Below are positions 7,380 to 50,111 of a stretch of 64,000 nt of DNA, in pieces. Position 1 is the first letter of the stretch, and each line of letters begins with the position of its first letter. A program made the translations under genes and the position numbers. The notes beneath the pieces are model-generated. The model did no database searches, was not told the DNA's origin, and saw only the letters and a list, made by a program, of their open reading frames with translations. The DNA is from Thermococcaceae archaeon (lineage in GTDB: Archaea; Methanobacteriota_B; Thermococci; Thermococcales; Thermococcaceae): assembly GCA_030156945.1 (NCBI GenBank), contig JASGLT010000001.1, forward strand, positions 113,677-177,676. Reading direction: 5' to 3'.

Positions 7380-8207
7380 ATGAAAAGGCTGGGCATAATC
7401 CTCGTGATCATCCTCCTGACTGCAAGCTTAAGCGGATGCATCGGAAATAGTCACGAAGAGACTCAAACGCCGCCTTCTCCAAGCACTACAAGCACCACAG
7501 GGGCGTCCCATACCAGTACGTCGAGCACTGAAAGGCCGATTAACGATATTGAAGGGGCAAAATCCTCGCTGGAATCAGTAAAACAGTTCACATATGAGCT
7601 CAAAACTGCCTTAAGCATGAACATAAGCCTCCAAACTTCCGGGATAAGTCAAAACTCCTCAATAAAACTCATCGTTCTTGAGAAGGGGTATCTGGACTTT
7701 GAATCGAAAGAGGCGTGGATAAACACGACAACCGTAAGCCTTCCAGACAACGTCTCAGTAAGCCTTACTCAGGTCGTTAAGGGAGGGAAAACTTACATAA
7801 AAACCAATCTTGGCATCCTCAACGTTTCAAACGAGGAAAATCCGGTATGGGAGTACAACGCCGTTTCCCTTGCCAGAAAATACCTACAGCAGGTGCCCCT
7901 GGAGAGCGAGAGCGGGGAGGAGCTAAAAATAACCTACATACTCGATCGGGAGGATGTTAAGGGCCTCGCAACCCCCTACATTGCCATCGACAATGGCACG
8001 GGAATCGAAGTCAAGAAAGGAAGGATAACATTCTTTTTCAGAGACGGAAGTTTGTCGGAGGTGGAGATAGAGTACATCCTCGTGACTCGGACCCCCATAG
8101 AAGACCCCGTTCTCGGAAGCGGAGAAATAATCCAGGAAGTGGAAGGGAGGAGCACGATAAAAATCACTTCCTTCAACAAAAAGGTTGAAGTCAGCCCACC
8201 TACTTGA
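7380..8207 (+). CDS. Predicted lipoprotein
   Basis: Signal peptide with lipobox LSGC followed by Ser/Thr-rich linker. Confidence 0.7.
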   Translation: MKRLGIILVIILLTASLSGCIGNSHEETQTPPSPSTTSTTGASHTSTSSTERPINDIEGAKSSLESVKQFTYELKTALSMNISLQTSGISQNSSIKLIVLEKGYLDFESKEAWINTTTVSLPDNVSVSLTQVVKGGKTYIKTNLGILNVSNEENPVWEYNAVSLARKYLQQVPLESESGEELKITYILDREDVKGLATPYIAIDNGTGIEVKKGRITFFFRDGSLSEVEIEYILVTRTPIEDPVLGSGEIIQEVEGRSTIKITSFNKKVEVSPPT

Positions 8208-8910
8208 GCTCCACGACGTCAAAGATGTTCAGAGCGAGGTCTATCAGGAGGAGCTTGTTAATCAAAGGCTCCCCAATGCCAGTGAGCAGTTTAATAACCT
8301 CCATGGCCTGTATTGAGCCAACAACTCCGGCAGTTGCCCCGATTATCGGGAATTTTTCCTCCTTTTCTTTAACTTTCGGGAAGAGCTCCTTTAGGCTCTT
8401 GGTGAGACCCGGTACTATCGTTGTGATCTGCCCGTGCATCCCCTCAACCGCCCCGTGAACGAGGGGAATTTTCTTCCTGTGCACGTAGTCATCGAGCAGG
8501 TAGCGGGTCTCGAAGTTGTCGAGACAATCGACCACGACATCAACGCCTTTAAGGACTTCTTCAACGTTCTCCTCCGTGAGTCTGCCACTGAAGGTTTCTA
8601 TTTTTATGTCGGAGTTGAAGCGCTCAAGCTTCCATCTGGCGGACTCTGGCTTTGGTCTCTCCCCCACGTCTTCCTCCCAGTGGAGTATCTGTCTGTTGAG
8701 GTTGCTCAGCTCGGGCCTCTGCTCGTCAACAAGCAGGAGAGTTCCCACACCAGCGGCTGCAAGGTAGTAAGCAACGGGGCTACCCAACCCACCAACACCC
8801 ACCACGGCAACCTTTGCACCCTTGAGCTTCTCCTGACCCTCCTTCCCGAAGATCATTATCTGCCGGTCATACCTTTCAATTTCCCTTTCACTCAACATAT
8901 CAACCACCAC
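8200..8910 (-). CDS. ThiF/MoeB/HesA family adenylyltransferase (E1-like)
   Basis: ERYDRQIMIFGKEGQEKLKGAKVAVVGVGGLGSPVAYYLAAAGVGTLLLVD; next to moaD-like gene. Confidence 0.92.
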   Translation of the reverse strand: MVVDMLSEREIERYDRQIMIFGKEGQEKLKGAKVAVVGVGGLGSPVAYYLAAAGVGTLLLVDEQRPELSNLNRQILHWEEDVGERPKPESARWKLERFNSDIKIETFSGRLTEENVEEVLKGVDVVVDCLDNFETRYLLDDYVHRKKIPLVHGAVEGMHGQITTIVPGLTKSLKELFPKVKEKEEKFPIIGATAGVVGSIQAMEVIKLLTGIGEPLINKLLLIDLALNIFDVVELK

Positions 8911-9166
8911 TCACAGGCGGGAATATCGCCACCACATCCCCATCCTGAAGAGCCTCATCAAACTTAACGTAGCGACCGTTTCTTGAGACGTTTACATCAG
9001 CCAAATCATCCTCCTCAGCAAAGACCTCATTCTTCAGTTCAGGATGCCTCTCCTTCAGGAATTCAATCAGCTCCCCCACAGTTATCCCATCGGGCACTTC
9101 AAGCTCTTCCTCACTCTTGCCCACTAGAGAGCGGTAACGGGCGAAGTATCTGACCCTTATTTTCAT
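8900..9166 (-). CDS. moaD: MoaD/SAMP ubiquitin-like small protein
   Basis: 88 aa beta-grasp-like sequence ending in ...AIFPPVSGG. Confidence 0.9.
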   Translation of the reverse strand: MKIRVRYFARYRSLVGKSEEELEVPDGITVGELIEFLKERHPELKNEVFAEEDDLADVNVSRNGRYVKFDEALQDGDVVAIFPPVSGG

Positions 9167-9185
9167 TGAATTCCCCCAAAGGAAA

Positions 9186-9306
9186 CTAATACGCGAGAGT
9201 TAAAAAATATTGCTCGATGTAATCAACCCACGAGAAATCACGCCCAACTTCTGAGAGCTTCAAGGCATTGTTGCCAAAGATATTGCTACTAACTTCCCCT
9301 ATCCAC
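9186..9306 (-). pseudogene. Remnant of glycosyltransferase (GT4-like) C-terminus
   Basis: Minus strand reads ...WIGEVSSNIFGNNALKLSEVGRDFSWVDYIEQYFLTLAY*, resembling GT group 1 C-termini; no start codon. Confidence 0.45.
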
Positions 9307-9362
9307 TACTTTTGTTTTTCCAAGTCTGTCCAAACCCAGTTGGCCCCCAATACTTGGGATTT

Positions 9363-9611
9363 TTAAGCCTCCCCCAGCATCTTTGATTCACTTCCCACCC
9401 TTTTCACAAGTTCTTCCGGAGTCATGTATTCGACTCTACCGTGCTCTCCTATGATGTAGGGCTCTTTCTTAGTCCTGTTCTTTTTCTGATCCGCCATGAA
9501 CGCGATTACAAGAACCCCAAAGCCCACGAGATCCCATGTACTAACTGCCTCCTGAACGATCAGGGCGAGAATATAGAAAACAAAAATGAGAATCCAATAT
9601 TTGACTTTCAT
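9363..9611 (-). CDS. Small membrane protein (candidate immunity protein, paralogue of 9787..10119)
   Basis: Two TM segments plus KKEPYIIGEHGRVEYMTPEELVKRV shared with neighbour PREPYIIGDSKEIEYLTEEELEQRL. Confidence 0.65.
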   Translation of the reverse strand: MKVKYWILIFVFYILALIVQEAVSTWDLVGFGVLVIAFMADQKKNRTKKEPYIIGEHGRVEYMTPEELVKRVGSESKMLGEA

Positions 9612-9659
9612 CTGAGTATCACCCCTCTGTTGTTTTCATGCTCCTCTTTCACGCTTAAA

Positions 9660-9770
9660 TTACAACCACGTAAAACCTAACCTCGTACGAGTGCTCACCC
9701 TCACTCGCCAACCATTGAAGGGTGAAGCTTTTAGTGGAGCCAGCACTAACGCTCCCGCTCAATGGGTCAT
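9660..9770 (-). pseudogene. Orphan CARDB junction fragment
   Basis: DNA matches the recurring junction (tcgtacgagtgctcaccct...attgaagggtgaagcttttagtggagcc), reading like ...STKSFTLQW.ASEGEHSYEVR; no intact ORF. Confidence 0.65.
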
Positions 9771-9786
9771 CCTCCTGATCTTCAAT

Positions 9787-10119
9787 TCATGACTCTCCAG
9801 TTTTTCCATGCTTAAGACGTTGTTCCAGCTCTTCTTCTGTAAGATACTCAATTTCCTTTGAATCACCAATGATGTAGGGTTCTCGTGGAACTTTCTTACA
9901 TCGCTCATAATGTTTCATATCGCAAAGTACCCAGAGTACGAACAGCGGCCAAGTGGGCAAGATTGCAATTAAGATACTCCACGGAATAGATCCAATTACG
10001 TAAACAGCCAATAGAAAGATAAAGACAAAAGGGACGACAAACTCTGCAAAACGTTTACTCATACTCGCCTCTTGCAATCTAGTTGTTAAGTATAATTCAA
10101 CATCATTCATTTTCCTCAC
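9787..10119 (-). CDS. Small membrane protein (candidate immunity protein)
   Basis: 110 aa, 2 TM, shares xEPYIIGxxxxxEYxTxEEL motif with 9363..9611; overlaps upstream gene. Confidence 0.65.
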   Translation of the reverse strand: MRKMNDVELYLTTRLQEASMSKRFAEFVVPFVFIFLLAVYVIGSIPWSILIAILPTWPLFVLWVLCDMKHYERCKKVPREPYIIGDSKEIEYLTEEELEQRLKHGKTGES

Positions 10120-10621
10120 CTTGGTTTTTGAATTCTAGGGTGAAGTCTAGTATGTGTAGTCCTAGTAGTGCTAGAGCTTGAAGCCCATAAATTGTGCGAT
10201 AGTAGAGGACGAGAGTGAGGGGGAGGATAATCATTAAGAGCACGGGTCTCTTAAGATCCTCCTTCAGCTTAAAATCATAAGCTAAATCACTAATAAACCT
10301 CAACACCCTATCCATGTAAAACAAAGGCAAAAACATCCACAAAAACCACAAAAGTGCAAAAGACTTTCCCAAAACTAAGATCAACGCGGCTATTGCGAGC
10401 CATATTGGGAAGAATAGTTTTGCCTCGAACTTGAACTTCTCTTTTTCAATCTCTTTATTAAACCACGCGCTCATAAGAGTGAATACTACAGAATAATACA
10501 AGTTAAGATGAACTATAGGGTATGCATTCGAAGAATAATTATCCCCCGTAATGAACACTAAAATAAGAGAAACAAGACCAGCCAGAGTCATGGCAATTCG
10601 AAGTACTTCTCTAACCTGCAT
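10103..10621 (-). CDS. Multi-TM membrane protein (candidate immunity protein)
   Basis: 172 aa with several hydrophobic helices, begins 5 nt after the 10626..11561 cassette. Confidence 0.65.
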   Translation of the reverse strand: MQVREVLRIAMTLAGLVSLILVFITGDNYSSNAYPIVHLNLYYSVVFTLMSAWFNKEIEKEKFKFEAKLFFPIWLAIAALILVLGKSFALLWFLWMFLPLFYMDRVLRFISDLAYDFKLKEDLKRPVLLMIILPLTLVLYYRTIYGLQALALLGLHILDFTLEFKNQGEENE

Positions 10622-10625
10622 GGCA

Positions 10626-11438
10626 CTACCCTCCTACGACATCATTATTGTCAAATCCTGAGTCTGGATCTGGAGCAAAAAGCCAGTCGTAGATGTCCAC
10701 TCCTATCAATAAGACAGTAAACGCTATGCCCCCAAATTTTGCTACTTTACTCCCAGCCTTTAACATGAGTAACCCTGCTGCCACATATTTCTCTGCCTCA
10801 ATGTCGTTTTTAATATAACTAACGAAAGCTTTAGCCTCTTCCACGACTCCTTTATCTTTAACCACAAGATCCTCACTTATCACGTCATCTTCAAAGACGA
10901 ACTTAATTTTATATATGTAACCCCCAAGTTGCTCCTTATATGAGGCATCTAATGGATCCAACGGATCCTTTCCAAAGTACCAGTTGGCGAAATCGTCATA
11001 AAGTATAATCCTCACTTGGATTGTGTCTGAGGGAGTTAAAGTATAACTTTTGCTATCCATGATAACACTTTTCACGCTGGATGTTCCTTCTTCCCAAACC
11101 TTCTTTCCACCGAACCATATCTGACGAAGTTCAAGGGAATTAACAGAAATTTGAGGATTCCACGAAGCAACACACGTAATGGGCTCCCCGGGATACACCT
11201 CTTTTGTGCAGTCTAAATTCGGAGAAACAATCTTTCCAACAACTTCCACAGTCACTTCCGCCCAGTGTTCTTCTCCTGCACCGTTCGGTTCACCATCATA
11301 ATTGTCGAGGAAGAGTTTGAACGTGTGGTTGCCAACACCCTGGATAGTGTAACTGAAACTAACGTTCCTCCCGCCATTCGCTGGAACTCTACCCTCAAAA
11401 CCATCAAAATTCCGAACCTGTGAGGTTGAGTATACCAT
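10626..11438 (-). CDS. Partial CARDB surface-protein cassette, signal-less, with hydrophobic C-terminal tail
   Basis: DGFEGRVPANGGRNVSFSYTIQGVGNHTFKLFLDNYDGEPNGAGEEHWAEVTV nearly identical to the full-length protein; ORF extends to 11561 but homology starts near 11407. Confidence 0.75.
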   Translation of the reverse strand: MVYSTSQVRNFDGFEGRVPANGGRNVSFSYTIQGVGNHTFKLFLDNYDGEPNGAGEEHWAEVTVEVVGKIVSPNLDCTKEVYPGEPITCVASWNPQISVNSLELRQIWFGGKKVWEEGTSSVKSVIMDSKSYTLTPSDTIQVRIILYDDFANWYFGKDPLDPLDASYKEQLGGYIYKIKFVFEDDVISEDLVVKDKGVVEEAKAFVSYIKNDIEAEKYVAAGLLMLKAGSKVAKFGGIAFTVLLIGVDIYDWLFAPDPDSGFDNNDVVGG

Positions 11439-11496
11439 CACATCTCCCTCAAAAACCGAGTTGAGAGAACTGAGGGCAACACTCTTATTCGGACTG

Positions 11497-11889
11497 TCAG
11501 CAGGGGATATCCGATGATACATCCACAATATCCTCACCCCTCTCATCTCCCCCAGAGACACCGCCCCTTGCCCACTTCATATAATAACTCCTGAGAAGGT
11601 AAGCATAAACCCCAGCCCAGATGATATTGTCCAAATAAGTCCTGAGACCGGGATTCATGCTGTCGACAACAAGGCCCAAATACATGATGATAAACGCTGA
11701 AGCCACCACTGGGGCAGGCATCTGTCTGGTTTTAAACACCCACCACACAGTAAAACTCCAAAGCAAAAGCAGAGAAATCTGAAGAACAAAAGAAAAATCA
11801 AAGTACCAATAGTAGATATTAACGAAACTCTCCCATGATAATAACAAAAGGGGGAGCAAGAGGAGCACTTTAAATGTGAAGCTACCCAT
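11497..11889 (-). CDS. Multi-TM membrane protein (candidate immunity protein)
   Basis: 130 aa hydrophobic protein directly after cassette 11896..12687. Confidence 0.65.
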   Translation of the reverse strand: MGSFTFKVLLLLPLLLLSWESFVNIYYWYFDFSFVLQISLLLLWSFTVWWVFKTRQMPAPVVASAFIIMYLGLVVDSMNPGLRTYLDNIIWAGVYAYLLRSYYMKWARGGVSGGDERGEDIVDVSSDIPC

Positions 11890-11895
11890 TAGGCA

Positions 11896-12687
11896 TCACC
11901 CCCAGAAGCTCTTTACGAATTCCCACAGCTTGTCTCCTGACTTAGATATCAATATTATTGTCACTATGATTTTTATTACGTTTTTGCCAAAGTTTTTCAG
12001 CCTTTGAACTCTCATGTCATGGTCGTATTTCTCCTGAGCACTTCCAGTGTAGAATAACGTTGTAGACGCTTTTAGAGCTTTATTGTTAAAGATAACGCCG
12101 TCGTTCTCATCAAAAACATCAAACCTGAGAATGATGCTGTATTCTGTATCCCAATAAGCAATCTGATATATTGTGTACGTATTGATATTGCCCCGGACTG
12201 TCGAGGACAATAAGTCATGATTGTCGGAGAGGCCAAAATGGGAAGCAAACCCATCATCCACCTTGCCGAGGTTTATCGGAATTTCCCGGGACGAGTGTGG
12301 GGGCACTTCTTTAAATGTGCTTAGATAGAAGATTCCCTCCAAGTTTTCAAAACGTTTGTAATTGATATCCGCCTCCTCATACGTCACTTCACCACAGAGA
12401 GTAATGTTGTTCAATTGCACTTTTACGGCAGTGGGATTATTGTTCACGACATGAACGATGCATGCGAAGCCCTCACCCAGACCAACCCGTGAAGGACACT
12501 CCAGCCTCATTTTCATCCCACTGCTTGGATTTGCAGCAACACTCACCCCTCCGCTCCAACCATCCACTTCCAACTCCTGCCCACCAACGACCTCGTAAAG
12601 CCTAACCCCGTACGAATGCTCACCCTGAACAGCAGTCCACTGAAGGGTGAAACTTTTAGTGGAGCTTGCGGGAACACTACCCCTCAC
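11896..12687 (-). CDS. Partial CARDB surface-protein cassette, signal-less, with divergent tail
   Basis: Begins MRGSVPASSTKSFTLQWTAVQGEHSYGVRLYEVVGGQELEVDGWSGGVSVA; then C...C domain and tail NVIKIIVTIILISKSGDKLWEFVKSFWG. Confidence 0.75.
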   Translation of the reverse strand: MRGSVPASSTKSFTLQWTAVQGEHSYGVRLYEVVGGQELEVDGWSGGVSVAANPSSGMKMRLECPSRVGLGEGFACIVHVVNNNPTAVKVQLNNITLCGEVTYEEADINYKRFENLEGIFYLSTFKEVPPHSSREIPINLGKVDDGFASHFGLSDNHDLLSSTVRGNINTYTIYQIAYWDTEYSIILRFDVFDENDGVIFNNKALKASTTLFYTGSAQEKYDHDMRVQRLKNFGKNVIKIIVTIILISKSGDKLWEFVKSFWG

Positions 12688-12770
12688 CGAACCAGCCTCC
12701 TAACCGTCTATGAGGAATATAGGAAATTAGTTACTGATTAAAAAGAAAAACAAAAAGTGGGAGTTCACTA

Positions 12771-13082
12771 TTATGAATCTTTTCGGGAATGTTCTGGTTT
12801 GGGGTACAGTTTTGTTAACACTAATATGTATATCAAGCTCGATAATGTGACTAGAAGGAAAACAATGATGTAAATTGAGGAGTGCAGTGCCCAAGGTGCC
12901 CATGTTCGGAACCATGCCCAATACGCCAGGAACATTGGCAGTCCAAGTACCGTCCTTTGTACCAGATGATAGTTTCCTCGCCTTAAATGAACGAGTAAGG
13001 CTATTGAGACTATCACCATCGTTGCAGGGTATAATACAATATTGAGTACAGACAAAGCATCGTCCAGAGTCATTCCCATCAC
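12771..13082 (-). CDS. Multi-TM membrane protein (candidate immunity protein)
   Basis: 103 aa hydrophobic protein; start overlaps stop of cassette 13079..13870. Confidence 0.65.
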   Translation of the reverse strand: MMGMTLDDALSVLNIVLYPATMVIVSIALLVHLRRGNYHLVQRTVLGLPMFLAYWAWFRTWAPWALHSSIYIIVFLLVTLSSLIYILVLTKLYPKPEHSRKDS

Positions 13083-13870
13083 CCCCGTATCGATAAGTCC
13101 ACTACAATGAATGTGACAATTACACCCACTATAGCCGCTCCAACTGGACCCAATCCAAGAGATGCTGCTATTAATGCTGTTGTAAGCCCAACACCCCCAC
13201 CAATTAGTAGCTCTTTTCCAATTTTCTCACTCTCCTTTTTCATGAGAGGGCTTCCGAAGTAGTAGAGTGTTATGGTCTTAGTGATGGTCGCATCCTCCTG
13301 CGGGTACGGCATGTCTATTTGTATAGTGAGAGTGTAGACCGTATCCGTCCAGTCAAACGAATATGACCCTATCGCAGGGTCATGTATGTATCTGTAGTCC
13401 AGTAGTTTTTTGTCCTCTGGGATTTCAATGGGAGCCACTAGCAGAACCTCAGTATGATTAGGGTCTATATTGATGGAATTCTGAATAGGGTACTCAATGC
13501 TCACTGTTCTAGTCTCGTGAAGATACTCATTGTAAGGATGGCCAGTTAAAATGACTTCTTTAGTGTTTATGCCAACCCTCTCGTTTAAAGTATTCTTTAA
13601 GTAGATTTTGCATTCGATAGTCTCACCAAGGCCAGCCCGCGGAGGACAGTCCACGTTTAATATTTCGACGCCCTTAATTTCATTTTTTTCTGAGATGCTA
13701 ATGCTTCCACTCTCACTGTCAACCTGCAACTCCTGCTCACCAACGACCTCGAAAAACTTCACCCCGTACGAATGCTCCCCAGCCTCAGCAGTCCATTGAA
13801 GGGTGAAGCTTTTAGCGGAGCTTGCTGGAGCTGGCGGAACGGGATTCATTATACTCACACCCTCCCTCAA
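13079..13870 (-). CDS. Partial CARDB surface-protein cassette with Gly-rich TM tail
   Basis: PASSAKSFTLQWTAEAGEHSYGVKFFEVVGEQELQVDSESG then tail LLIGGGVGLTTALIAASLGLGPVGAAIVGVIVTFIVVDLSIRG. Confidence 0.75.
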   Translation of the reverse strand: MREGVSIMNPVPPAPASSAKSFTLQWTAEAGEHSYGVKFFEVVGEQELQVDSESGSISISEKNEIKGVEILNVDCPPRAGLGETIECKIYLKNTLNERVGINTKEVILTGHPYNEYLHETRTVSIEYPIQNSINIDPNHTEVLLVAPIEIPEDKKLLDYRYIHDPAIGSYSFDWTDTVYTLTIQIDMPYPQEDATITKTITLYYFGSPLMKKESEKIGKELLIGGGVGLTTALIAASLGLGPVGAAIVGVIVTFIVVDLSIRG

Positions 13871-14355
13871 TCTTTTCTCAAATCTTCAAACATTATATAT
13901 CCAGCAAACACGAGCATTATCGCGGCAATGGCTTCACTCCAATTAGATGTTGAAACGCCTTCAATAAGGGGATTCAACGAGAAGAACCCCAAGAGCAGTA
14001 CCCCAAACCATCTAAGCCTCACTTCGGCGTTCTTTGCTGGAGGTTCTTTTCTAAGGCCGTACTGAGCCAGCAGTATAAATCCAGAGAGGGCGAGAAGAAT
14101 TGCCAATAACAAAGCCGCGAGAGTAACGCCAACAATAAGGGCACCTGTAAGAATTATAGTGATATTTGTCACAAGAAAGACATTTGACGGTCTCTCTGAA
14201 ATTTTCTTTTTTCCTCGTATCATCCATAGGATTGTTGTCCAGACGTATATAACCGAGAGGGTTACACTGGCAAGGGTTAACGTTACCCTCAAGTCTGTGG
14301 CAATATATACGAAGAGAAGCGAGAGAACATAAGTGAGAATACCCCAGTATCTCAT
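13867..14355 (-). CDS. Multi-TM membrane protein (candidate orphan immunity protein)
   Basis: 162 aa polytopic protein, overlapping starts and stops with both neighbours. Confidence 0.65.
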   Translation of the reverse strand: MRYWGILTYVLSLLFVYIATDLRVTLTLASVTLSVIYVWTTILWMIRGKKKISERPSNVFLVTNITIILTGALIVGVTLAALLLAILLALSGFILLAQYGLRKEPPAKNAEVRLRWFGVLLLGFFSLNPLIEGVSTSNWSEAIAAIMLVFAGYIMFEDLRKD

Positions 14356-14846
14356 GGCCCCGCCCCCATCAGTGCTTCGACGATTAGATACCCTATTATG
14401 GCTGGAAACGGATAGATCAAGGTCTCCAGGGTCTGTTCAGGTTTAAATGCAAGGATCAGGGCGTTAACTAGCTGAAAGGGCCAAAAGCGTTTGAACTTGC
14501 GTAGTGGGCCTACTGTTGATAAGTGCAAGAGGCCTAAGTACCCGAACCAGATCAAAAACACCACCACTAGTTTAAGAACAATTTTATGCTCCTCATAAAT
14601 GTATGCGATTGCCAGCAGTAGTGCCAAGAATAGGGTGAAGGTTAGATATAAAACGCCCTTGACTTTATGTGTTTTTGTATCTGATCCTCTGAATAGTATA
14701 ACCAGAAAAGCCAAGATTTGGATGAAGATTAAATTGGCTGCTAGTACTACCATCCCCAAGAGAGATCCTTCTGCCCAGCCTATAAGGGCGGAAGATAGAA
14801 CAAAAAATAAAAGGCCTGTAGAAAGTTTTAGGATACTGCTCTCCAT
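14352..14846 (-). CDS. Multi-TM membrane protein, paralogue of 14944..15462
   Basis: Alignable C-terminal halves (FWPFQLVNALILAFKPEQTLETLIYPFPAIIGYLIVEAL versus FWAYQWIVMVVLAIKSNEPIKVFLLLLFGLIGGYLIIKGL). Confidence 0.65.
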   Translation of the reverse strand: MESSILKLSTGLLFFVLSSALIGWAEGSLLGMVVLAANLIFIQILAFLVILFRGSDTKTHKVKGVLYLTFTLFLALLLAIAYIYEEHKIVLKLVVVFLIWFGYLGLLHLSTVGPLRKFKRFWPFQLVNALILAFKPEQTLETLIYPFPAIIGYLIVEALMGAGP

Positions 14847-14943
14847 TTATGCACCCCCCTAAGGGAATAGTTCTCAAATCTTAACTGGAATTGTAACGTT
14901 GTTACCAACACACATTAGACCCCCTCCTTTGCACCTGTTTTTG

Positions 14944-15462
14944 TTACCACTCTTTTTTGAGCTGGATAAGCCCTTTGATTATTAAGTATCCCCCAATCAG
15001 CCCAAATAATAATAACAGGAACACTTTTATCGGCTCGTTAGATTTAATGGCAAGAACTACCATAACAATCCACTGATATGCCCAGAAATACTTGACTTCC
15101 CCCGATGGATAAGTAAGTTGGTCCCTACTACGTTTGGCTAAATACAACGGAAATATGAACAATAAAACCAAAATTGTAAAAACAGCCACTATCCCCATAA
15201 TTCTACCTAAATCGTGGGATACTACCGCAATTATTCCCAAGATGCCCAAGAACAAGGCGAAAGAAGTTTGAATGATGTGCCATATTCTTTTGTCTCCCCC
15301 TGACGGCCTTGACCAGAGAACAATCGTCCCCCATAACGGGACAAACATTAGATTTATTGCGAGTACGTATAAACCACTTTCAATTCCCCGAACTTCTCCA
15401 ATCAAAATAATGGAGAGTGTAATAAGAAAGAACCCCATGAGGAAACTTCTCTTGAATCCCAT
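14944..15462 (-). CDS. Multi-TM membrane protein (candidate immunity protein)
   Basis: ATG preceded by GGGGGG-rich RBS; starts 11 nt after cassette stop; ORF as listed extends to 15579. Confidence 0.65.
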   Translation of the reverse strand: MGFKRSFLMGFFLITLSIILIGEVRGIESGLYVLAINLMFVPLWGTIVLWSRPSGGDKRIWHIIQTSFALFLGILGIIAVVSHDLGRIMGIVAVFTILVLLFIFPLYLAKRSRDQLTYPSGEVKYFWAYQWIVMVVLAIKSNEPIKVFLLLLFGLIGGYLIIKGLIQLKKEW

Positions 15463-15473
15463 ATCAAGCCCCC

Positions 15474-16655
15474 CTAAGGTAACCCTAGTACCTTGTAAGT
15501 TATAAACCCAACTGCAGCTCCGATCAACGTTCCCCCTCCGGGTACAGCCGAACCTATGGTGGCCCCAATCTTGGTGCATTTAAGTATGTATGCAGTTGCA
15601 ACTCCAGCACCAAATCCAACGGCCATTGAAATTACAAGATGTTCTATCACTTTGTCTGAATCTACCCTTATTGTCACATATTTAGTGGCTTCATAACTTA
15701 AACCCCATATCTTTCCTTTTGAATCAATTACATAGGGCTGCCCATTAACAAGTACCGTGAAATTCACTTGAACTGGAACTGTGACGCCTGATAGTTTCTT
15801 TATCTCGATCCCACTCTCAATAATTCCCTTCTCAGGCAGAACATCGTGGAATTTTAGTTCAAACTCTCCAACACCCCCCGCTGGAACTGTTTTTGTGAGT
15901 ATCGTTGGTGGAGTAAATTCGGGAGTTAAATCCTTTGTATATCTTGTCTTAAGGATATGTGCGTTGGCATTAATGCTGGTTATCTCCCACTGCACATCAG
16001 TGGGATTTGTAAAGTACACAACGCACTCCATGTCTAAAACCAAATTTCCTTCCTTTGCCAATAACTGTAAATCACTACAGTCCATGACTGCCTTTTGCAC
16101 TTTTGTTTGAGTTACTTCAATGTACTCGCTTGCCATCGAGTACTCTCCAATTTTCAGTTTTAGAGTCGTGTTCTGAGTTATGGGTCCTATGGTTGCGATT
16201 ATTCTTGCAGTCTTGTTAGCATAGATTGTCAAATAGCCATCCGAGATTGAATAGCCCACTCCATGATAACCTTCCTTAGGCCACCAAACGTTCCCAGTAT
16301 CGTCAACTAACTCGATGGGCAATGTTTGCTTGTAGTTCTCCGAGTTCTTCACAGTGATGTAAACAGTCACATTATTACCCGCTTCAACCGGGTTTGGAAC
16401 AACCTCCAGCCAGGCAGAGAGACCATTCAACACGCGCGCAACACTCACCTCCCCGCTCCACTCATCCACTTCCAACTCTTGCCCACCAAGGACCTCGAAA
16501 AGCCTAACCTCGTATGAGTGCTCACCCTGAACAGCAACCCAGTGCAGAGCCACCGAAGCACCGGAAGTGCTGACATTAACTGGCTTCGAATCAACCAACA
16601 GACTATCCACAAGCAGTTCCACCATAGAAATCAGAAAGGTGAAGATAAAAGTCAA
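15474..16655 (-). CDS. Partial CARDB surface-protein cassette with Gly-rich TM tail
   Basis: VALHWVAVQGEHSYEVRLFEVLGGQELEVDEWSGEVSVA; tail LVISMAVGFGAGVATAYILKCTKIGATIGSAVPGGGTLIGAAVGFITYKVLGLP. Confidence 0.75.
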   Translation of the reverse strand: MTFIFTFLISMVELLVDSLLVDSKPVNVSTSGASVALHWVAVQGEHSYEVRLFEVLGGQELEVDEWSGEVSVARVLNGLSAWLEVVPNPVEAGNNVTVYITVKNSENYKQTLPIELVDDTGNVWWPKEGYHGVGYSISDGYLTIYANKTARIIATIGPITQNTTLKLKIGEYSMASEYIEVTQTKVQKAVMDCSDLQLLAKEGNLVLDMECVVYFTNPTDVQWEITSINANAHILKTRYTKDLTPEFTPPTILTKTVPAGGVGEFELKFHDVLPEKGIIESGIEIKKLSGVTVPVQVNFTVLVNGQPYVIDSKGKIWGLSYEATKYVTIRVDSDKVIEHLVISMAVGFGAGVATAYILKCTKIGATIGSAVPGGGTLIGAAVGFITYKVLGLP

Positions 16656-16744
16656 AGGTCATGAACTCGAAATTCATTCATGATATCACCTGCAAGACGC
16701 CATTGTTATCATTTTCCTATGCGGATTACTCTGGCAGTGACATT

Positions 16745-17263
16745 TCATGTCAACCCCTCCTTATATAACTGGGCAACGTATAACACCACAGCTATTCCAC
16801 CTAAAAGTATAATAGCGTAGTCTTTGATTATCCAGATTAATGCCCAAAGTGCCAACAATGTTAGCGCCACATAAGTTTTTCCGAGCTTTTGGCCCAATGA
16901 GATTATTCCAATCCCATTTAGCAGGCTTATTGAGACTATTTTAAGAAGGATTGAAAAGTTCTCGATACCTTTTTTGACTACCAAATAAATCACCACAGCA
17001 ACCCATATAATGAGCACAATACTGCCTCCACTTGAAAACTCCTTGTCCTTTTTGGTCTGATTTGTAATTAGAGAATATGGTATCCCAAACGAAAAAATTC
17101 CAAATCCCAAGCCAAGGACAGGATTCTCAAAGGCCTTGCTAAGTGTCAGCAATTCCAGAGACAGCAGTGAAAAAGCAAAAGAAAGCTGAAGTACCCTCTT
17201 CCAGTTAGGATACGCAATAAGACCCAAAAAGGGAAGGAGGGAGACTATATACACTAGCTCCAT
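16745..17263 (-). CDS. Multi-TM membrane protein (candidate immunity protein)
   Basis: 172 aa polytopic protein starting 3 nt downstream of the full-length gene stop. Confidence 0.65.
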   Translation of the reverse strand: MELVYIVSLLPFLGLIAYPNWKRVLQLSFAFSLLSLELLTLSKAFENPVLGLGFGIFSFGIPYSLITNQTKKDKEFSSGGSIVLIIWVAVVIYLVVKKGIENFSILLKIVSISLLNGIGIISLGQKLGKTYVALTLLALWALIWIIKDYAIILLGGIAVVLYVAQLYKEGLT

Positions 17264-17266
17264 CTT

Positions 17267-20200
17267 TTACTCCCCCGTGAAATAGTCGAGATAACCAAAT
17301 ACCCTCCGCGAGTATTCAATCGCATTTCTCGCCCATACTATCACTTTGTTTGACCCCTTGAGGAATATCAGCGTAACGGCAATATCCACAGTAACAACTT
17401 TGTTATTCTGAGTTATTCTGCCACTACCGTAACCTTTGAATTTAAATGTTCCATGAGAAGTATTAAGGTTATACGGTAACTCCACGTAGTATGTACTTCC
17501 CCAGAGACCCCCCTCCAATACTGCGAGAGGAACCTCTGCAATTGACATAAACTGAATGGTAATATAACTCTGAGGAACTATTATATCAGATGAAATCTTA
17601 CCCTTAAACTTTTTCAGTCCAACATTCAATGCAGTTGGAGCGGCAGTAGCGTCTCCAATATCCAATCCATCAATTTTTATTTTTTCATCCGTGGGGTTGT
17701 ATATAATAGCAACACATTCAACTTCCGCTTGATAGTTTATGAGAACGTTCTTGATGGACTCTAGATTTACACCCGTGACTAGCTTAGTGAAATACAAATC
17801 ACTGCACTCAAACCCCACCTGCTTTAATTCAGTCCCATTCACAGGTTTCACTTTCACCGTCACTTCTGCCCAATGTTCTTCTCCTGCACCGTTCGGTTCA
17901 CCATCATAATTGTCGAGGAAGAGTTTGAACGCGTGGTTGCCAACACCATGGATAGTGTAACTGAAACTAACGTTCCTCCCGCCATTCGCTGGAACTCCAC
18001 CCTCAAAACCATCAATCCTCTTTATTATCGCCCCACTCTCATCCTCCACGAAACCCCTAACGGAGATGGCACTAGAGTCAAAATTCCAAATCCTAACAGT
18101 AAAGAACACTGTTCCGCCGCCTTCAAGTTCTGTTGGGAATGCCTCCAAAGAGACTGCAAACTGCTGATACTGAGAAGCAACACTCACCTCTCCACTCCAA
18201 CCATCCACTTCCAACTCCTGCCCACCAAGGACCTCGAAAAGCCTAACCTCGTATGAGTGCTCACCCTGAACAGCAGTCCACTGAAGGGTGAAGCTTTTGG
18301 TGGAGCTTGCTGGAACACTACCGCTCACCGAATCAACCACCTTGCCATCAATGAGGAGCTTCAGCTTAACAGTTTTGCTCTGGGTGTATGAGTTCTCAAC
18401 ATTAACCTTGAACGTGAGCTGTTCGCCGCTCTTTACCGTCTCCGGGCTCCTGGTAACACCCACAATTTGCAGTGAGCCGCTTGATGTAGAACCCTTGGAA
18501 ACCACAAAATACCCGCTTAGAATCTTCGAATGCTGGCCAAAGCTGCATTTCATGGTATAGCTGTACGATCCGGAGTACGCATAGTGGGCCGAGCCAAGCG
18601 TTACGGTATCACTCCCACCGTTTCCTGGAGCATCGAAACCCCCAGATGGTCTATATATGCCCCTGCTTGTGCTCGTCTGTGGAACTTCAACTTCAAGCAT
18701 GCAAGAGCCGCTAATCGGCTCACTGTTGTAGTTTGTAACAACGGCTTTGAACGTTAAATCCTCTCCTTCTTCAAAACTCCCATCCCTGTCCGAATCCTGA
18801 ATTAAAAGCGATGCTTGAACTTTACCTGGATCTATCGGGTCTTCAAGAGTTATTGTCGCCGAATAAGAAACCTCAATCAGCCTAGTTGATGTTAGGGAAT
18901 ATTCGGAATCCGTTGAAAGGGGAGTGTCTCCCGAAGAGGGCTTGTATGTAATCTTGACCGTTCCACTAACCAAAACGCTTCCAGTTCCGTATACCCTCCC
19001 GCTATTAGTGCTCTCCACGGTCGTAATCTCATCTTTATACAAAAATCCAACGCTCTCCGAATCCTCGAGTTCGGTGCCACTGAACTCCACCTCGATGTTG
19101 GAAACTGCATTTTTCTCAGCCTTAATCTCAACCACGACTTTGTACGTGGCATAATCCGCAGTTGTCGTCACTGGAACTACATAAATCGATGTGACCACGA
19201 GCCTTCCTTCCTCTCCAGCAGCCAAGGCCTCTTCAACAAGAGGACCTCCCTCTCCAGCTACAGATATTGGACCTATTGGGCTTGGAAGGACTCCCATGCA
19301 TCCAGATGAACGTGTGTAGGTCTTTAGAGCATCTGCGAGTTGAGAAACCTTCTCGTTAAGCATATAGGTCAGCTCGGGATTTGAGTTTCCGGCTTTCTTG
19401 GCGAGAAGTATTGACTCAACCTGAAGTGTAAGGTTGTATGCTTTAAGGGCGTTCCATGTGTACTCTATCTTGCATGAGTTCAACGATTCCGAGGAGGACG
19501 TTGGTTTTATAATTGGCTTTATGGGCTTTATAGGAGTTGGTTCTGGTCTTGGCGGAGAGGGTGAAGGACCGCCTAAAAATTTGGTTATGACAATGTACCC
19601 CCCAGAAACACGAACCATTGATGTGTTTGAGTCCAATTTACCGGAGATTATGTTAAGCTCTTCCTGCTTCAGCTTTTGTATGGCATAAAGCTTATCATCA
19701 ACCCCCCCTGATCTGTATGCAGTGTAAAAGTTTACCCACCCCATTAATAGCTGAGGGAGAATTACGCGATTACCGGCAAGACTTGGATTTCCATCCGCCC
19801 CGCGCCAGTACTTCCATTCCAAACCCTTAGTTTCATACTCATTGTACCTGAATGCTACCCTTAGGAACGCAGTTGAAAAGTCGGAAAGGAATTTTTCCAT
19901 GTCAAAATCCCCATGAATGTAGTCGGCGTTTTGAACAATGTAGTCTTGAAGGGCCTGGATTTCCTCATCGCTCCATCCCTGCTCCTTAAGGGCATTAACA
20001 GTTTCCTGGGGAAGGCCCTTTCTTTTGATTTCCTGAGCCATTGCCCTGAGCTCACTTTCCGTATAGTGGAGTTTCACTCCGGAGGCCTTAAGCTCCGTGA
20101 GTGCCTCCCACACAAGGGCTGAAATTTGAGCCGCGTTCTCAGAGCCATCCCGAGAGTTTTTGATGAGCTCATTGATGGCACTCAAATTCCCTCTCTGAGC

Positions 20201-20365
20201 TTTGGGAACCAGTTCAGCCTCCCTGTTTAGTATCTCCCAAAAGGCATCGTAGACCGAGCTTTTAGTTCCTGAAGTTGCAGCTACCACATAACCCGAGAAA
20301 GTCGCTGAACTCACGCTGAAACCTACTATCAACATAGCCACCAGTAAGCTTAGTACTTTTCTCAT
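17267..20365 (-). CDS. Large secreted CARDB-repeat surface protein (full-length head of the array)
   Basis: 1032 aa, signal peptide MRKVLSLLVAMLIVGFSVSSATFSGYVVAA, Pro-rich linker, repeated CARDB-like domains, C-terminal Cys-pair domain and distinct tail. Confidence 0.85.
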   Translation of the reverse strand: MRKVLSLLVAMLIVGFSVSSATFSGYVVAATSGTKSSVYDAFWEILNREAELVPKAQRGNLSAINELIKNSRDGSENAAQISALVWEALTELKASGVKLHYTESELRAMAQEIKRKGLPQETVNALKEQGWSDEEIQALQDYIVQNADYIHGDFDMEKFLSDFSTAFLRVAFRYNEYETKGLEWKYWRGADGNPSLAGNRVILPQLLMGWVNFYTAYRSGGVDDKLYAIQKLKQEELNIISGKLDSNTSMVRVSGGYIVITKFLGGPSPSPPRPEPTPIKPIKPIIKPTSSSESLNSCKIEYTWNALKAYNLTLQVESILLAKKAGNSNPELTYMLNEKVSQLADALKTYTRSSGCMGVLPSPIGPISVAGEGGPLVEEALAAGEEGRLVVTSIYVVPVTTTADYATYKVVVEIKAEKNAVSNIEVEFSGTELEDSESVGFLYKDEITTVESTNSGRVYGTGSVLVSGTVKITYKPSSGDTPLSTDSEYSLTSTRLIEVSYSATITLEDPIDPGKVQASLLIQDSDRDGSFEEGEDLTFKAVVTNYNSEPISGSCMLEVEVPQTSTSRGIYRPSGGFDAPGNGGSDTVTLGSAHYAYSGSYSYTMKCSFGQHSKILSGYFVVSKGSTSSGSLQIVGVTRSPETVKSGEQLTFKVNVENSYTQSKTVKLKLLIDGKVVDSVSGSVPASSTKSFTLQWTAVQGEHSYEVRLFEVLGGQELEVDGWSGEVSVASQYQQFAVSLEAFPTELEGGGTVFFTVRIWNFDSSAISVRGFVEDESGAIIKRIDGFEGGVPANGGRNVSFSYTIHGVGNHAFKLFLDNYDGEPNGAGEEHWAEVTVKVKPVNGTELKQVGFECSDLYFTKLVTGVNLESIKNVLINYQAEVECVAIIYNPTDEKIKIDGLDIGDATAAPTALNVGLKKFKGKISSDIIVPQSYITIQFMSIAEVPLAVLEGGLWGSTYYVELPYNLNTSHGTFKFKGYGSGRITQNNKVVTVDIAVTLIFLKGSNKVIVWARNAIEYSRRVFGYLDYFTGE

Positions 20366-20418
20366 GGTATCACCAAAGCGATGTTTTATTGTAATGCAAT
20401 AAAAAATTTTATCTTTAA

Positions 20419-20435
20419 ATTTTGCATACTATCAA
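20419..20435 (-). promoter_or_regulatory. 17-nt promoter motif TTGATAGTATGCAAAAT, copy 2
   Basis: attttgcatactatcaa on + strand, identical to 6817-6833; upstream of the array head gene. Confidence 0.5.
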
Positions 20436-20479
20436 CCGGAGTCATCAAAAAACGGATAGAAACATTTAGAACGTGCCAG

Positions 20480-20995
20480 TTACCACGGCACGCTCTTCCA
20501 GCCCATCCTGTAGGCAAAATAGTTGGCCCCCCAGTGCACGAAAGGGGAAACGATTAGCAGGAAGATTATCTGGGCGCTGGAGAGCGTTTTCACAGGATAG
20601 GCAAAGGCGAGGGCGCTTATGAGAAAGCCGAGCTGGTCGAGACCTATAGCCGGATAGCCCCTCGGAAGGTTGGCCCGCCTTTTTATGAAACTCCCGACGA
20701 GATCTCCGATGAGCGCACCAAAAGACAGTAGAAAGGCCAGCTTTAGGGCATTCTCAAGGCTTCCGTAAAATTGGGGGGTTATGAAATACTGGATTAGACC
20801 CACAGAGGTGCCGATGAGGACTCCGCCCAAAAAGCCCCTCCACGTCTTGCCGTCCCCCAAAAGCCTTCTTCCGTCCTTCCAAGTCCTGCCGCCGTCTATA
20901 GGCCTTCCCCCACCAACGATAACGGGTGAAGCGTTCGCAAAGTAAGCGGGGAGTATGTACCAGAAGGCCCAGAATACCGATGAGAGCCAGTCCAT
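20480..20995 (-). CDS. carS: CDP-2,3-bis-(O-geranylgeranyl)-sn-glycerol synthase
   Basis: PAYFANASPVIVGGGRPIDGGRTWKDGRRLLGDGKTWRGF. Confidence 0.92.
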   Translation of the reverse strand: MDWLSSVFWAFWYILPAYFANASPVIVGGGRPIDGGRTWKDGRRLLGDGKTWRGFLGGVLIGTSVGLIQYFITPQFYGSLENALKLAFLLSFGALIGDLVGSFIKRRANLPRGYPAIGLDQLGFLISALAFAYPVKTLSSAQIIFLLIVSPFVHWGANYFAYRMGWKSVPW

Positions 20996-21046
20996 TCAAC
21001 CACCCTCATTATAGCGGAGGAAATCGCTTATAAGGATTAGGTAAAT

Positions 21047-21982
21047 TTGAGCAACAAGGTGGCGGTGGTGAAAAAAGCGGTGGCAGTCTTTATTGCGGTG
21101 AGTCTGCTCATGAGCCTCTGGGGGGCTTACGTTGCATACGCGGTGATCAGCATGAACCCCAAGCTCGAAGCGAGCTGGGGCAACGTCAGCGAGGGAGAAG
21201 TCGAAATAGTAGTCGATGCGGAGCTTGGGAAGCCCCTGCTCGTTCCGGCTTCAGTTGAAAACCTATCAATAAAATTCAACGAGGTTGAAGTTGCCTCCCT
21301 TGAAGAATTCAAGTATTCTCCGACAAAACCGGATGCAGAACTCGTGATAGAGTTGGATACTAACAAGCTGGTAAAGGCCATCGAAAGCTACTTCAACAAC
21401 GGCCAACATGGAAAAGCTGACGTCAGGGTAAAACTCGGGCTTTTTGGATTGCTCCACCCAACGCTTAAGTTCTCCCAGGAATTCCATGAGGACATGCTGG
21501 GTCAGATGAATTTCAAAGCTGAGAGCAAACCGATTTTAGGCGGCCTCCTTCACACACCGTCGGTCGAGGGCACGAGAGTAGTGTGGATGGGAGGGGAGGA
21601 TGGGGTTTGGAAGTTAAAGGCGTACGTGACTCTCAAGAACCCTAATTCAATACCGATCCCGGTTTCCAACCTTGAGTTCGAGATTTCCGCGAACGGAATA
21701 ACGGTAGGAAAGGGAAAAACCAGCCAGGGGGTCACAATACCGGCCGGGGGCATTGCAACGGTTCCCATCGACGTAGAGATATACTCAGAGTACCTTCCGA
21801 AGGTGCTGGCCACCCACATTAAAAATGGTGAAGAAAGCACGGTGAGACTGAACATCTACATAACAGCTGATATGGGTGGCAAAAGTGTCAGAATAGGGCT
21901 AAAAAGCGAGGAGGTCGTAGTAAAAACCGACGTAATGGTCAGCATAAACGAAGCCCTTTCCAATGTTTCCCGGAGAGAATGA
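21047..21982 (+). CDS. LEA14/WHy-like (LEA type 2) domain protein, membrane anchored
   Basis: N-terminal TM; AYVTLKNPNSIPIPVSNLEFEISANGITVGKGKTSQGVTIPAGGIATVPIDVEI. Confidence 0.75.
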   Translation: MSNKVAVVKKAVAVFIAVSLLMSLWGAYVAYAVISMNPKLEASWGNVSEGEVEIVVDAELGKPLLVPASVENLSIKFNEVEVASLEEFKYSPTKPDAELVIELDTNKLVKAIESYFNNGQHGKADVRVKLGLFGLLHPTLKFSQEFHEDMLGQMNFKAESKPILGGLLHTPSVEGTRVVWMGGEDGVWKLKAYVTLKNPNSIPIPVSNLEFEISANGITVGKGKTSQGVTIPAGGIATVPIDVEIYSEYLPKVLATHIKNGEESTVRLNIYITADMGGKSVRIGLKSEEVVVKTDVMVSINEALSNVSRRE

Positions 21983-33466: not shown

Positions 33467-33925
33467 CTAAAGGCGGCCACTACAAAAATGAATCAAAGGC
33501 AAGCTTTTAATAAGCTTGTAATCCTCTTCGGGGATTTCCCTCATTGCCTTGCCCATCAGGTGGCCGCTCCACTTCTTCTTGTTCGTGATGAACTTCAGCT
33601 TTGGAATGAGCGGCTTGAAATCAACCTCTCCAAGCTTGACCGGCTTGATTCTCACCCTCAGCGGGTAAGTCTCGTTGAGATGCGGTGGACTCTTGAAAAT
33701 TCTCGTTGAGTCTTCGTAAGGCTCGCTGACAACCTCAAAAATGCCCACGATTTTTGGTTCGAGGACTTCTTTGTTCTCCCGCTCCTGCTTTAGGTAGATA
33801 ACGAGCTCATCACCGGGTTTGACCTTGGCGATTGTGTTCCTGTGTCTTCTCGGCACGCCCCAGACTTTCTTCTCCTTAATCACCTTCCAGTTCGCACGAT
33901 TGGTAATGCAGAGCCAGTGGGTCAT
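33467..33925 (-). CDS. EVE domain (PUA-like) protein
   Basis: [47 protein letters not shown]; start reset to internal ATG. Confidence 0.85.
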
Positions 33926-34000
33926 AAGGTTCACCGAGTAAATGTTAAAACCTAAACAACTTAAATACTTGCCCCACATCAAATACCATAGGTGACGCTC

Positions 34001-34450
34001 ATGTTCGAAGAAATTATAAAAAAGCTTCTCGAAACTAACGCTCCTACTACTTCCAAACTCAAAATCCCGTTAGCAGGAATTAAAGCTTTTGAAACAATTA
34101 TTAAGTCAAAGGAATCAATTGATCCTGATATCGCAGTCAAAATAGCAGTAGCCGAATTCACTAAATATTCGACAGGAGACCCTGAAGTGATAACTAATTT
34201 CAAGAAGATTGTCAAAAGAGAATTTTCTAAACTTAACAACCCTAAACTATTGAAGAAAAAAGCGAGAGCTCTCAAGGAAATATGGGAAACCGAAGCTAGA
34301 ACTTTGACAGCCCAAAGCAAACGAAATAAATGGTTATCAATCAGGGTTACAGAAACAGAGTACGAAGCCATTCTCCAACAGGCACAAATGGAAGGGCTTA
34401 GTTTATCTGCCTATATCCGAAAGAAATTAGGTTTAAAATACAATTCGTAA
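34001..34450 (+). CDS. Protein with C-terminal ribbon-helix-helix-like segment, adjacent to R-M genes
   Basis: [36 protein letters not shown]. Confidence 0.6.
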
Positions 34451-34501
34451 ATATCGTGTTGCACCAAAAAATTTATATTTATGTTGCACGTAATATTATC
34501 G

Positions 34502-34520
34502 AATGTCTTATTAAGACATT
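34502..34520. promoter_or_regulatory. Perfect palindrome upstream of the Dam-like MTase
   Basis: AATGTCTTA-T-TAAGACATT. Confidence 0.6.
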
Positions 34521-34548
34521 CTTTGAGTAACCCTTAGGAGGCGTGATT

Positions 34549-36408: not shown

Positions 36409-36484
36409 TCAGTTATCACCCAAGTTACCTAAGGTCGAAAGTTTTAAATATTTTATCTCCCGAAAGAAATGCTAGTGATGCCTA

Positions 36485-38404: not shown

Positions 38405-38405
38405 A

Positions 38406-49044: not shown

Positions 49045-49170
49045 TGCTCTCCACCTGTCATTTTATGGGTTATTGAATCACATATTTGATATTTTAACCC
49101 CCATATAGGCAAATTATTGAGCGTCATCCAATAAAGCCCCAGCTGGTTTGAATGAACGTGAACACCTCCA

Positions 49171-49381
49171 ATGGAACCACTCGATCCAGAGGAAGCACTG
49201 ATTCTTGAGCTCAGGGGTTTATATTGCTTGCTGAACAAGAAATTGTCAAAAGGCATTCTTGGAAAAACGAGCTCCAACGGAGCAAATAAAGGAATTAAAA
49301 GGAAAATTTGACAAAATAGGCAATTATAAGGAATTTATTGACGTTTTGAGGGCAATCGTAGATTATAGCCAAGGAGCGTGA
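49171..49381 (+). pseudogene. Small frameshifted gene between cdc6 and oriC
   Basis: MEPLDPEEALILELRGLYCLLNKKLSKG then, after a frame change, AFLEKRAPTEQIKELKGKFDKIGNYKEFIDVLRAIVDYSQGA*. Confidence 0.5.
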
Positions 49382-50030: not shown

Positions 50031-50111
50031 GTAATTTAGACTTTTTATGTGCTTCCACGTACTTAAACGTTCATCCACTACTTTTTTAAATAGGGGCTCG
50101 AAGGGGTTAAC

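What the first reader, a model, noticed from the sequence alone, without database searches (positions are those of the whole stretch)
9360..20365. Candidate archaeal polymorphic toxin/bacteriocin locus with silent C-terminal cassettes and membrane immunity proteins
Seen: one full-length secreted CARDB protein (17267..20365) is followed on the same strand by at least four signal-less partial copies (15474..16655, 13079..13870, 11896..12687, 10626..~11438). They begin inside the same CARDB modules (TKSFTLQWTAVQGEHSYEVRLFEVLGGQELEVDGWSGEVSVA or DGFEGxVPANGGRNVSFSY...WAEVTV) and end in unrelated tails. Each is followed within a few nt by a different small multi-TM gene. Established: conserved secreted stem + variable C-terminus + orphan tip modules + adjacent immunity genes is the architecture of polymorphic toxins (Rhs, CdiA, MafB). 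Inference: the tips kill by a membrane mechanism and the TM proteins protect. General proposals of archaeal polymorphic toxins exist in the literature, and overlap with those should be checked.
Basis: partly seen in the sequence, partly recalled or inferred. Interest (0 to 1): 0.95.

Follow-up and report, generated by a model that had tools for sequence, protein, structure and literature searches.

The report
Thermococcus VARTIG toxin-like cassette locus
This is a known but unexplained gene cluster of heat-loving archaea (VARTIG), in which a secreted stem protein swaps interchangeable ends, and comparison of 53 genomes shows that each end travels with its own membrane-protein partner, as expected of microbe-against-microbe toxins with matching antidotes.

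Summary
Window 9166-20480 (minus strand) holds a signal-peptide CARDB/Ig stem (1032 aa), four signal-less partial copies with different tails, a fifth remnant and nine small TM genes. It is not new in kind: it is a VARTIG module (Makarova et al. 2021, PMC8416519), whose authors left polymorphic toxin, complement-like immunity and self-recognition open, found no toxin domain and saw no within-locus recombination. Comparing 68 VARTIG loci from 53 of 95 Thermococcaceae genomes favours the toxin/immunity reading. (1) The same tip has the same downstream partner in 186/288 pairs, against 31/9417 for different tips. (2) 19 of 27 shared tip families occur both on full stems and as orphans. (3) Stems at one chromosomal site, up to 93% identical, carry unrelated tips, mostly switching at CARDB domain ends; one species pair shows a tip-partner pair displaced intact. 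(4) Orphan tips often share 90-96% identical DNA with their own stem. (5) Tip C-termini are enriched in glycine-zipper hydrophobic segments, suggesting membrane permeabilisation. (6) 82/233 partner-family genes stand without their tip. Toxicity, immunity and delivery are undemonstrated. The site is dispensable: 19 of 34 scored congeners are empty.

The parts
9166..20480 (-). VARTIG island between carS (20480-20995) and the small ThiS/MoaD-like gene (8900-9166); absent in the relative G025
   Evidence: L112 (G025) matches window 8200-9165 and 20481-21084 with only about 70 nt between; CarS and ThiF by Pfam
17267..20365 (-). Stem: secreted CARDB/Ig protein, 1032 aa; tip approximately residues 833-1032
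   Evidence: tip recurs as an orphan in L053 and L066
16745..17263 (-). P1, multi-TM partner of the stem tip (putative immunity)
   Evidence: homologue directly behind the same tip in L053, L066 and L045
15474..16655 (-). Cassette 1 (c1): CARDB remnant, distal Ig domain, glycine-zipper C-terminus; no clear start in frame
   Evidence: tip on full stems in L045, L042, L052 and L088
14944..15462 (-). P2, multi-TM gene of the c1 module
14352..14846 (-). P3, multi-TM gene, paralogue of P2
   Evidence: P2-P3 match E 5e-9
13867..14355 (-). P4, multi-TM gene; directly behind c1-type tips in L045, L042, L052 and L084, so probably a c1 partner
13079..13870 (-). Cassette 2 (c2)
   Evidence: tip on full stems in L063, L065, L092 and L094, at the same chromosomal site
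12771..13082 (-). P5, TM partner of c2
   Evidence: same partner family behind c2-type tips in 4 of 4 scored relatives
11896..12687 (-). Cassette 3 (c3); GTG start with an upstream AGGAGG
   Evidence: 163 nt at 92.0% to the stem; tip on a stem in L043; start context
11497..11889 (-). P6, TM partner of c3
   Evidence: 4 of 4 scored relatives
10626..11561 (-). Cassette 4 (c4), ends DNNDVVGG; probable start nearer 11438
   Evidence: 166 nt at 95.8% to the stem; tip on a stem in L070
10103..10621 (-). P7, multi-TM partner of c4
   Evidence: 3 of 3 scored relatives
9787..10119 (-). P8, TM gene without its own tip (paralogue of P9)
9662..9786 (-). Fifth CARDB-module remnant, frame broken
9363..9611 (-). 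P9, TM gene without tip; a homologue stands alone at the same site in G046

Best explanation
The locus is a VARTIG module that works like a polymorphic toxin system. A secreted Ig/CARDB stem presents one C-terminal tip. The tip's glycine-zipper hydrophobic end inserts into and permeabilises the membrane of neighbouring, related cells. The multi-TM protein encoded directly behind the tip protects the producer in its own membrane. The signal-less copies are displaced or reserve tips kept with their immunity genes. Tip-immunity pairs enter, are displaced or are reloaded by recombination through the CARDB segments near the end of the stem. Shown here: stem conservation with tip exchange, breakpoints mostly at CARDB domain ends, pairing of tips with specific membrane partners, partners without tips, and dispensability of the island. 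Inferred: toxicity, membrane target, immunity, surface display, and the direction of displacement.
For: Same strict tip family gives same partner family in 186/288 pairs vs 31/9417 for different tips; the upstream neighbour shows no such link and the second gene downstream only a weak one. It holds for a tip on a stem versus the same tip as orphan (86/132, 0 of 2000 shuffles, maximum 10) and across chromosomal sites (157/251). Stem pairs up to 93% identical carry tips at 25-28% identity at the same site; 27 of 36 similar stem pairs have different tips. L067/L094: stem 84.5%, tip plus partner 96.0%, displaced about 940 nt. Tip hydrophobic segments are enriched in Gly and GxxxG; two tips pass Pfam glycine-zipper cut-offs. 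82/233 partner-family genes stand without their tip; solo P9 homologue at the otherwise empty site in G046. The same orphan-module anatomy is shown to be functional toxin/immunity in CDI (PMC3150448).
Against: No tip has a demonstrated or confidently recognised toxin domain; glycine zippers also occur in harmless membrane proteins; 18 of 55 tip types show no hydrophobic C-terminal segment by the criterion used, including possible junk ORFs. No delivery apparatus was identified. Solo partners of the one clearly testable family (P9) are rare in genomes without VARTIG (1 weak match in 28). Cassette 1's partner is ambiguous (P2 or P4). Structure prediction of a tip failed (pLDDT 40).
Confidence: 0.6

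Rival explanations
1. Kin or self-recognition without killing: the tip is a ligand and the adjacent TM protein its matched receptor, so that cells adhere to or cooperate with like cells (one of the published VARTIG hypotheses, by analogy with MHC; compare Proteus IdsD/IdsE).
For: Matched, polymorphic tip-partner pairs fit ligand-receptor as well as toxin-immunity; tip and partner identities rise together (Spearman 0.76); Ig/CARDB stems are adhesin-like.
Against: Glycine-zipper hydrophobic tips are poor extracellular ligands; orphan signal-less tips and stacks of extra partners (82/233 without tip) are expected for immunity repertoires and less so for receptors.
Confidence: 0.17
2. Innate-immunity or complement-like role: the variable distal Ig domain binds foreign molecules or viruses, with TM genes as accessory proteins (second hypothesis of PMC8416519).
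For: Ig folds, two conserved cysteines, hypervariability; a weak A2M match on the stem (E 0.0027, below cut-off).
Against: Each C-terminal end is tied to a specific membrane partner, which target recognition by the Ig domain does not require; no PADLOC model other than one faint KwaA match.
Confidence: 0.08
3. Surface-anchoring module: the hydrophobic end anchors the stem in the producer's own membrane and the adjacent TM protein is a dedicated anchoring or sorting factor.
For: C-terminal hydrophobic segments, and the conserved DNNxxxGG end that the VARTIG authors read as a possible sorting signal.
Against: An anchor would not need dozens of unrelated versions each with its own partner; partners without a tip and orphan tips without signal peptides would be useless; Gly content is twice that of ordinary TM segments.
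Confidence: 0.1
4. Decaying repeat debris: orphans are recombination leftovers with no function.
For: Some copies are frame-broken (9662-9786; cassette 1 start) and the site is often empty.
Against: Intact orphan ORFs with dN/dS of 0.08-0.68, partner starts with Shine-Dalgarno motifs (67% with 5 or more bases), and pairing kept across species.
Confidence: 0.05

Closest known systems
VARTIG module of Thermococcales (arCOG07710/arCOG14200; Makarova et al. 2021, PMC8416519)
   Same: Same stem, small C-terminal homologues, multi-TM genes, DNNxxxGG ends, distal cysteines, hypervariable C-terminus, restriction to the same archaea.
   Different: Nothing separates this locus from VARTIG. New here: within-locus DNA homology, mapped breakpoints, quantified tip-partner pairing, a displacement example, fixed insertion sites with empty counterparts, and glycine-zipper tips.
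CDI loci with orphan cdiA-CT/cdiI modules (Poole et al. 2011, PMC3150448) and CDI ionophore toxins (PMC11630599)
   Same: One full-length effector, downstream signal-less tip plus immunity modules carrying pieces of the stem, tips found on full effectors elsewhere; in the ionophore class the toxin acts in the membrane and immunity proteins are highly polymorphic.
   Different: No CdiB, no two-partner secretion, no outer membrane, no recognised VENN-like motif; stem is Ig/CARDB; archaeal; toxicity untested.
Glycine-zipper toxins: Caulobacter Cdz (PMC5380434) and class II bacteriocins
   Same: Glycine-zipper hydrophobic segments, surface association for Cdz, small TM immunity protein; Bacteriocin_IIc is a sub-threshold match of two tips.
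   Different: Those are short peptides exported by dedicated transporters; VARTIG tips sit at the end of a long Ig stem with a Sec-type signal.

Membership tests
VARTIG | Large secreted Ig/CARDB protein first in the operon | tested here: met
   Stem 17267-20365 with signal-like N-terminus and CARDB
[quoted passage not shown]
   Four cassettes and a remnant
VARTIG | Heterogeneous multi-TM genes in the same operon | tested here: met
   Nine TM genes P1-P9
VARTIG | D[ND]NxxxG[GD] C-terminus and two distal cysteines in members | tested here: met
   Cassette 4 ends DNNDVVGG; paired cysteines in all five tails
VARTIG | Restricted to Thermococcales | tested here: met
   Stem N-terminus in 52 of 116 genomes of the phylum, all in the window's family
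VARTIG | Assignment to arCOG07710/arCOG14200 profiles | not testable with these tools
   No arCOG library on hand
Polymorphic toxin system | Conserved N-terminal part with exchangeable C-terminal tips | tested here: met
Polymorphic toxin system | Orphan tip modules downstream that occur on full effectors elsewhere | tested here: met
   19 of 27 shared tip families in both states
Polymorphic toxin system | Tip-specific partner gene directly downstream | tested here: met
   186/288 vs 31/9417; genetic pairing only
Polymorphic toxin system | Tip has toxic activity that the partner neutralises | not testable with these tools
   Needs expression assays
Polymorphic toxin system | Recognisable toxin domain in the tip | tested here: inconclusive
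   Glycine-zipper matches, two above cut-off; no curated toxin family above cut-off
Polymorphic toxin system | Known delivery route or pretoxin/protease motif | not tested
   Only a signal-like N-terminus on the stem was seen
CDI (CdiBAI) | CdiA/CdiB two-partner secretion | tested here: not met
   Pfam on the stem gives CARDB only; no CdiB-like gene among the locus genes
Class II bacteriocin | Short peptide with double-glycine leader and dedicated transporter | tested here: not met
   Tips are ends of long proteins; Bacteriocin_IIc only below cut-off (17.5 vs 27.1 bits)

The most novel reading that the evidence does not exclude
VARTIG is an archaeal polymorphic toxin system whose effectors are a large, diversified family of glycine-zipper, membrane-permeabilising tips carried on an Ig stem, with matched multi-TM immunity proteins, reloaded by recombination through Ig domains between species.
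Probability: 0.5. Interest if true: 0.78.

Novelty: new member of a known kind. Interest (0 to 1): 0.56.

Why it matters
The 2021 description left three functions open. The pairing, displacement and glycine-zipper evidence gives a specific, cheap test (tip alone, tip plus own partner, tip plus foreign partner) that could decide the function in a genetically tractable archaeon. If true, antagonism between closely related hyperthermophiles rests on Ig-fold stems and membrane-active tips rather than on the nucleases usual in archaeal polymorphic toxins, and the mapped breakpoints explain how tips are exchanged between species.

Tried and rejected
The genome-contig scan returned a single relative; the genome search replaced it. 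The first iterative homology search drifted into TM partners and was filtered by hydropathy. About seven of the 30 within-locus DNA matches are one stretch read in two overlapping ORFs (100% identity at ORF ends) and are discounted. Treating P2 as the only partner of cassette 1 was revised: other loci point to P4. AlphaFold2: cassette 1 aligned with the window's own copies gave pLDDT 40, not used; P4 alone gave a helical model at 68, too weak, so no fold search was run. No PDB sequence relative of stem or cassette 1 (one chance-level match at E 0.75). No plasmid copy of the stem. PADLOC gave only a faint KwaA match to one partner. P4 matches in VARTIG-free genomes are faint and to a larger (about 290 aa) protein. 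A pure-decay explanation is disfavoured because orphan ORFs and pairing are conserved.
Full report
Observation. The shared segments are real DNA repeats: D1, 182 nt, four copies; D3, 166 nt, 96%; D2 adds a fifth remnant at 9662-9786. The array also holds TM genes without a tip of their own (P8, P9), and P2-P3-P4 stacked behind cassette 1. The island occupies the place of about 70 nt between carS and the small ThiS/MoaD-like gene: in relative G025 (CarS 91% identical) the two genes are adjacent.

Identity. This is a VARTIG module as described by Makarova, Wolf, Karamycheva and Koonin in 2021 (PMC8416519): same stem with CARDB, small C-terminal homologues, TM genes, two cysteines in the distal Ig domain, and the DNNxxxGG end (cassette 4: DNNDVVGG). 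Those authors proposed polymorphic-toxin, complement-like and MHC-like roles, found no toxin, detected no recombination within loci, and said that breakpoints could not be mapped with the genomes then available. A full-text search found no later functional study in the held library (the other relevant use of the word is a 2023 editorial).

Comparison set. The stem has relatives in 53 of 95 Thermococcaceae genomes; its N-terminus was found in 52 of 116 genomes of the phylum, all in this family. 68 loci were fetched and 231 Ig ORFs collected, 200 with a scored downstream ORF.

Fixed, dispensable sites. Many loci share flanks: 17 (the window included) lie by carS and/or moaD-thiF, 10 at a second site, others at further recurrent sites. 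From the coordinates, carS and thiF are 324-342 nt apart (empty site) in 19 places and 1.8-18 kb apart in 13; two genomes are intermediate. The window's nearest relative by CarS (G025) is empty; the window carries 11.6 kb.

Tip exchange. Among 36 stem pairs alike over at least 900 nt at 80% or more, 27 have different tip families (one of these is two ORFs of a single locus, and a few stems are truncated by contig ends). At the window's site, L054/L063 stems are 93% identical over residues 60-650 but 28% over the last 200; L067/L094 88% vs 27%. In most pairs examined homology stops at the end of a CARDB domain, either after 'DSRSGxIxV' or after 'HWxEVxVxV'. These are the two places where the window's cassettes leave the stem sequence. 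In L067 and L094, at the same site, the stems match at 84.5% up to nt 2866/2869; then L067's tip plus following gene (1167 nt) is 96.0% identical to a block that in L094 lies about 940 nt further on, behind another tip-partner pair. That is the displacement pattern described for CDI loci (PMC3150448, PMC9086364). Whether it arose by insertion in one or deletion in the other is not determined.

Within-locus homology. 30 of 472 within-locus Ig-gene pairs, against 95 of 25,863 between loci, share at least 60 nt at 90% or more; about seven of the 30 are overlap artefacts. So orphan tips often keep a piece of their own locus's stem, unlike the 2021 statement. The window gives three cases (95.8%, 92.0%, 91.8%).

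Pairing. With tips clustered strictly, two tips of one family from different loci are followed by the same partner family in 186 of 288 pairs; tips of different families in 31 of 9417. The first, looser clustering gave 294/904 vs 121/18617, with a permutation maximum of 35. The link is absent upstream and weak at the second gene downstream. It holds between a tip on a stem and the same tip as an orphan (86/132), and between different chromosomal sites (157/251), so shared synteny does not explain it. Nineteen of 27 shared strict tip families occur in both states. In the window the stem tip pairs with P1, cassette 2 with P5, cassette 3 with P6 and cassette 4 with P7 in every scored relative; cassette 1 is mixed, with P4 a good candidate. 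Partner-family genes without their own tip directly upstream are common, 82 of 233, and a P9 homologue stands alone at the carS-moaD site of G046, a genome whose VARTIG locus is elsewhere.

What the tips may do. In 37 of 55 tip types the last 75 aa hold at least one hydrophobic segment (6.9% of internal windows do). These segments are rich in glycine (15.2% vs 6.2% in partner TMs and 7.9% in other TMs) and GxxxG (0.58 per segment vs 0.10 and 0.14). Two tips exceed Pfam's cut-off for glycine-zipper families, one of them (L052) a relative of the window's cassette 1; Bacteriocin_IIc, E492-group microcin and, for one partner, colicin K immunity appear below cut-off. Glycine-zipper toxins with membrane immunity proteins are known from bacteria (Cdz, PMC5380434), a staphylococcal toxin with a glycine zipper depolarises membranes (PMC12744356, abstract seen), and CDI ionophores form a large family with highly polymorphic immunity proteins (PMC11630599). 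Membrane-active tips would explain why the 2021 search, which noted the absence of nuclease domains, found no toxin, and why the partners are membrane proteins. This step is inference.

Orphans. They lack signal peptides (4/95 vs 27/39 stems); start signals are intermediate between partner genes and interior controls; dN/dS in the compared tips ranged from 0.08 to 0.68 (some comparisons are saturated at synonymous sites, and several involve a stem copy). Some orphans are clearly broken (9662-9786; cassette 1's start). They look like stored or displaced modules rather than plain debris.

Verdict. Toxin activity itself remains to be shown.

Limits. Genes were called mechanically; family counts depend on single-linkage thresholds and include some junk ORFs; genomes are one per species, so exchange within a species was not observed; related loci are not independent, so permutation results show association, not exact significance.

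Noticed in passing
window 33467-38744: AT-rich block (31-39 kb, mostly 35-41% GC) with an EVE-domain protein, a D12-class adenine methylase next to a DpnII-type endonuclease, a GmrSD-like gene (partial N-terminal domain) and a truncated N6/N4 methylase: a restriction/defence island.
   Followed up: partly
window 49045-50210: AT-rich stretch (37% GC) upstream of a Cdc6/Orc1 gene (47773-49044), with GC skew changing sign near 50 kb: candidate replication origin.
   Followed up: no
L115 (G046:C1:588441-588662, minus strand): A lone homologue of P9 sits between carS and the MoaD-like gene in a genome whose VARTIG locus is elsewhere: a solo partner gene at the otherwise empty site.
   Followed up: partly
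L042:5034-5483 and L052:5075-5524: These tips match Pfam DUF6861 just below its cut-off (E 4.6e-6 and 9.1e-5); no held paper mentions this family.
   Followed up: no
G065 C369 and C359: One assembly seems to hold both an empty and an occupied carS-moaD site on different contigs, possibly two strains mixed in one bin.
   Followed up: no
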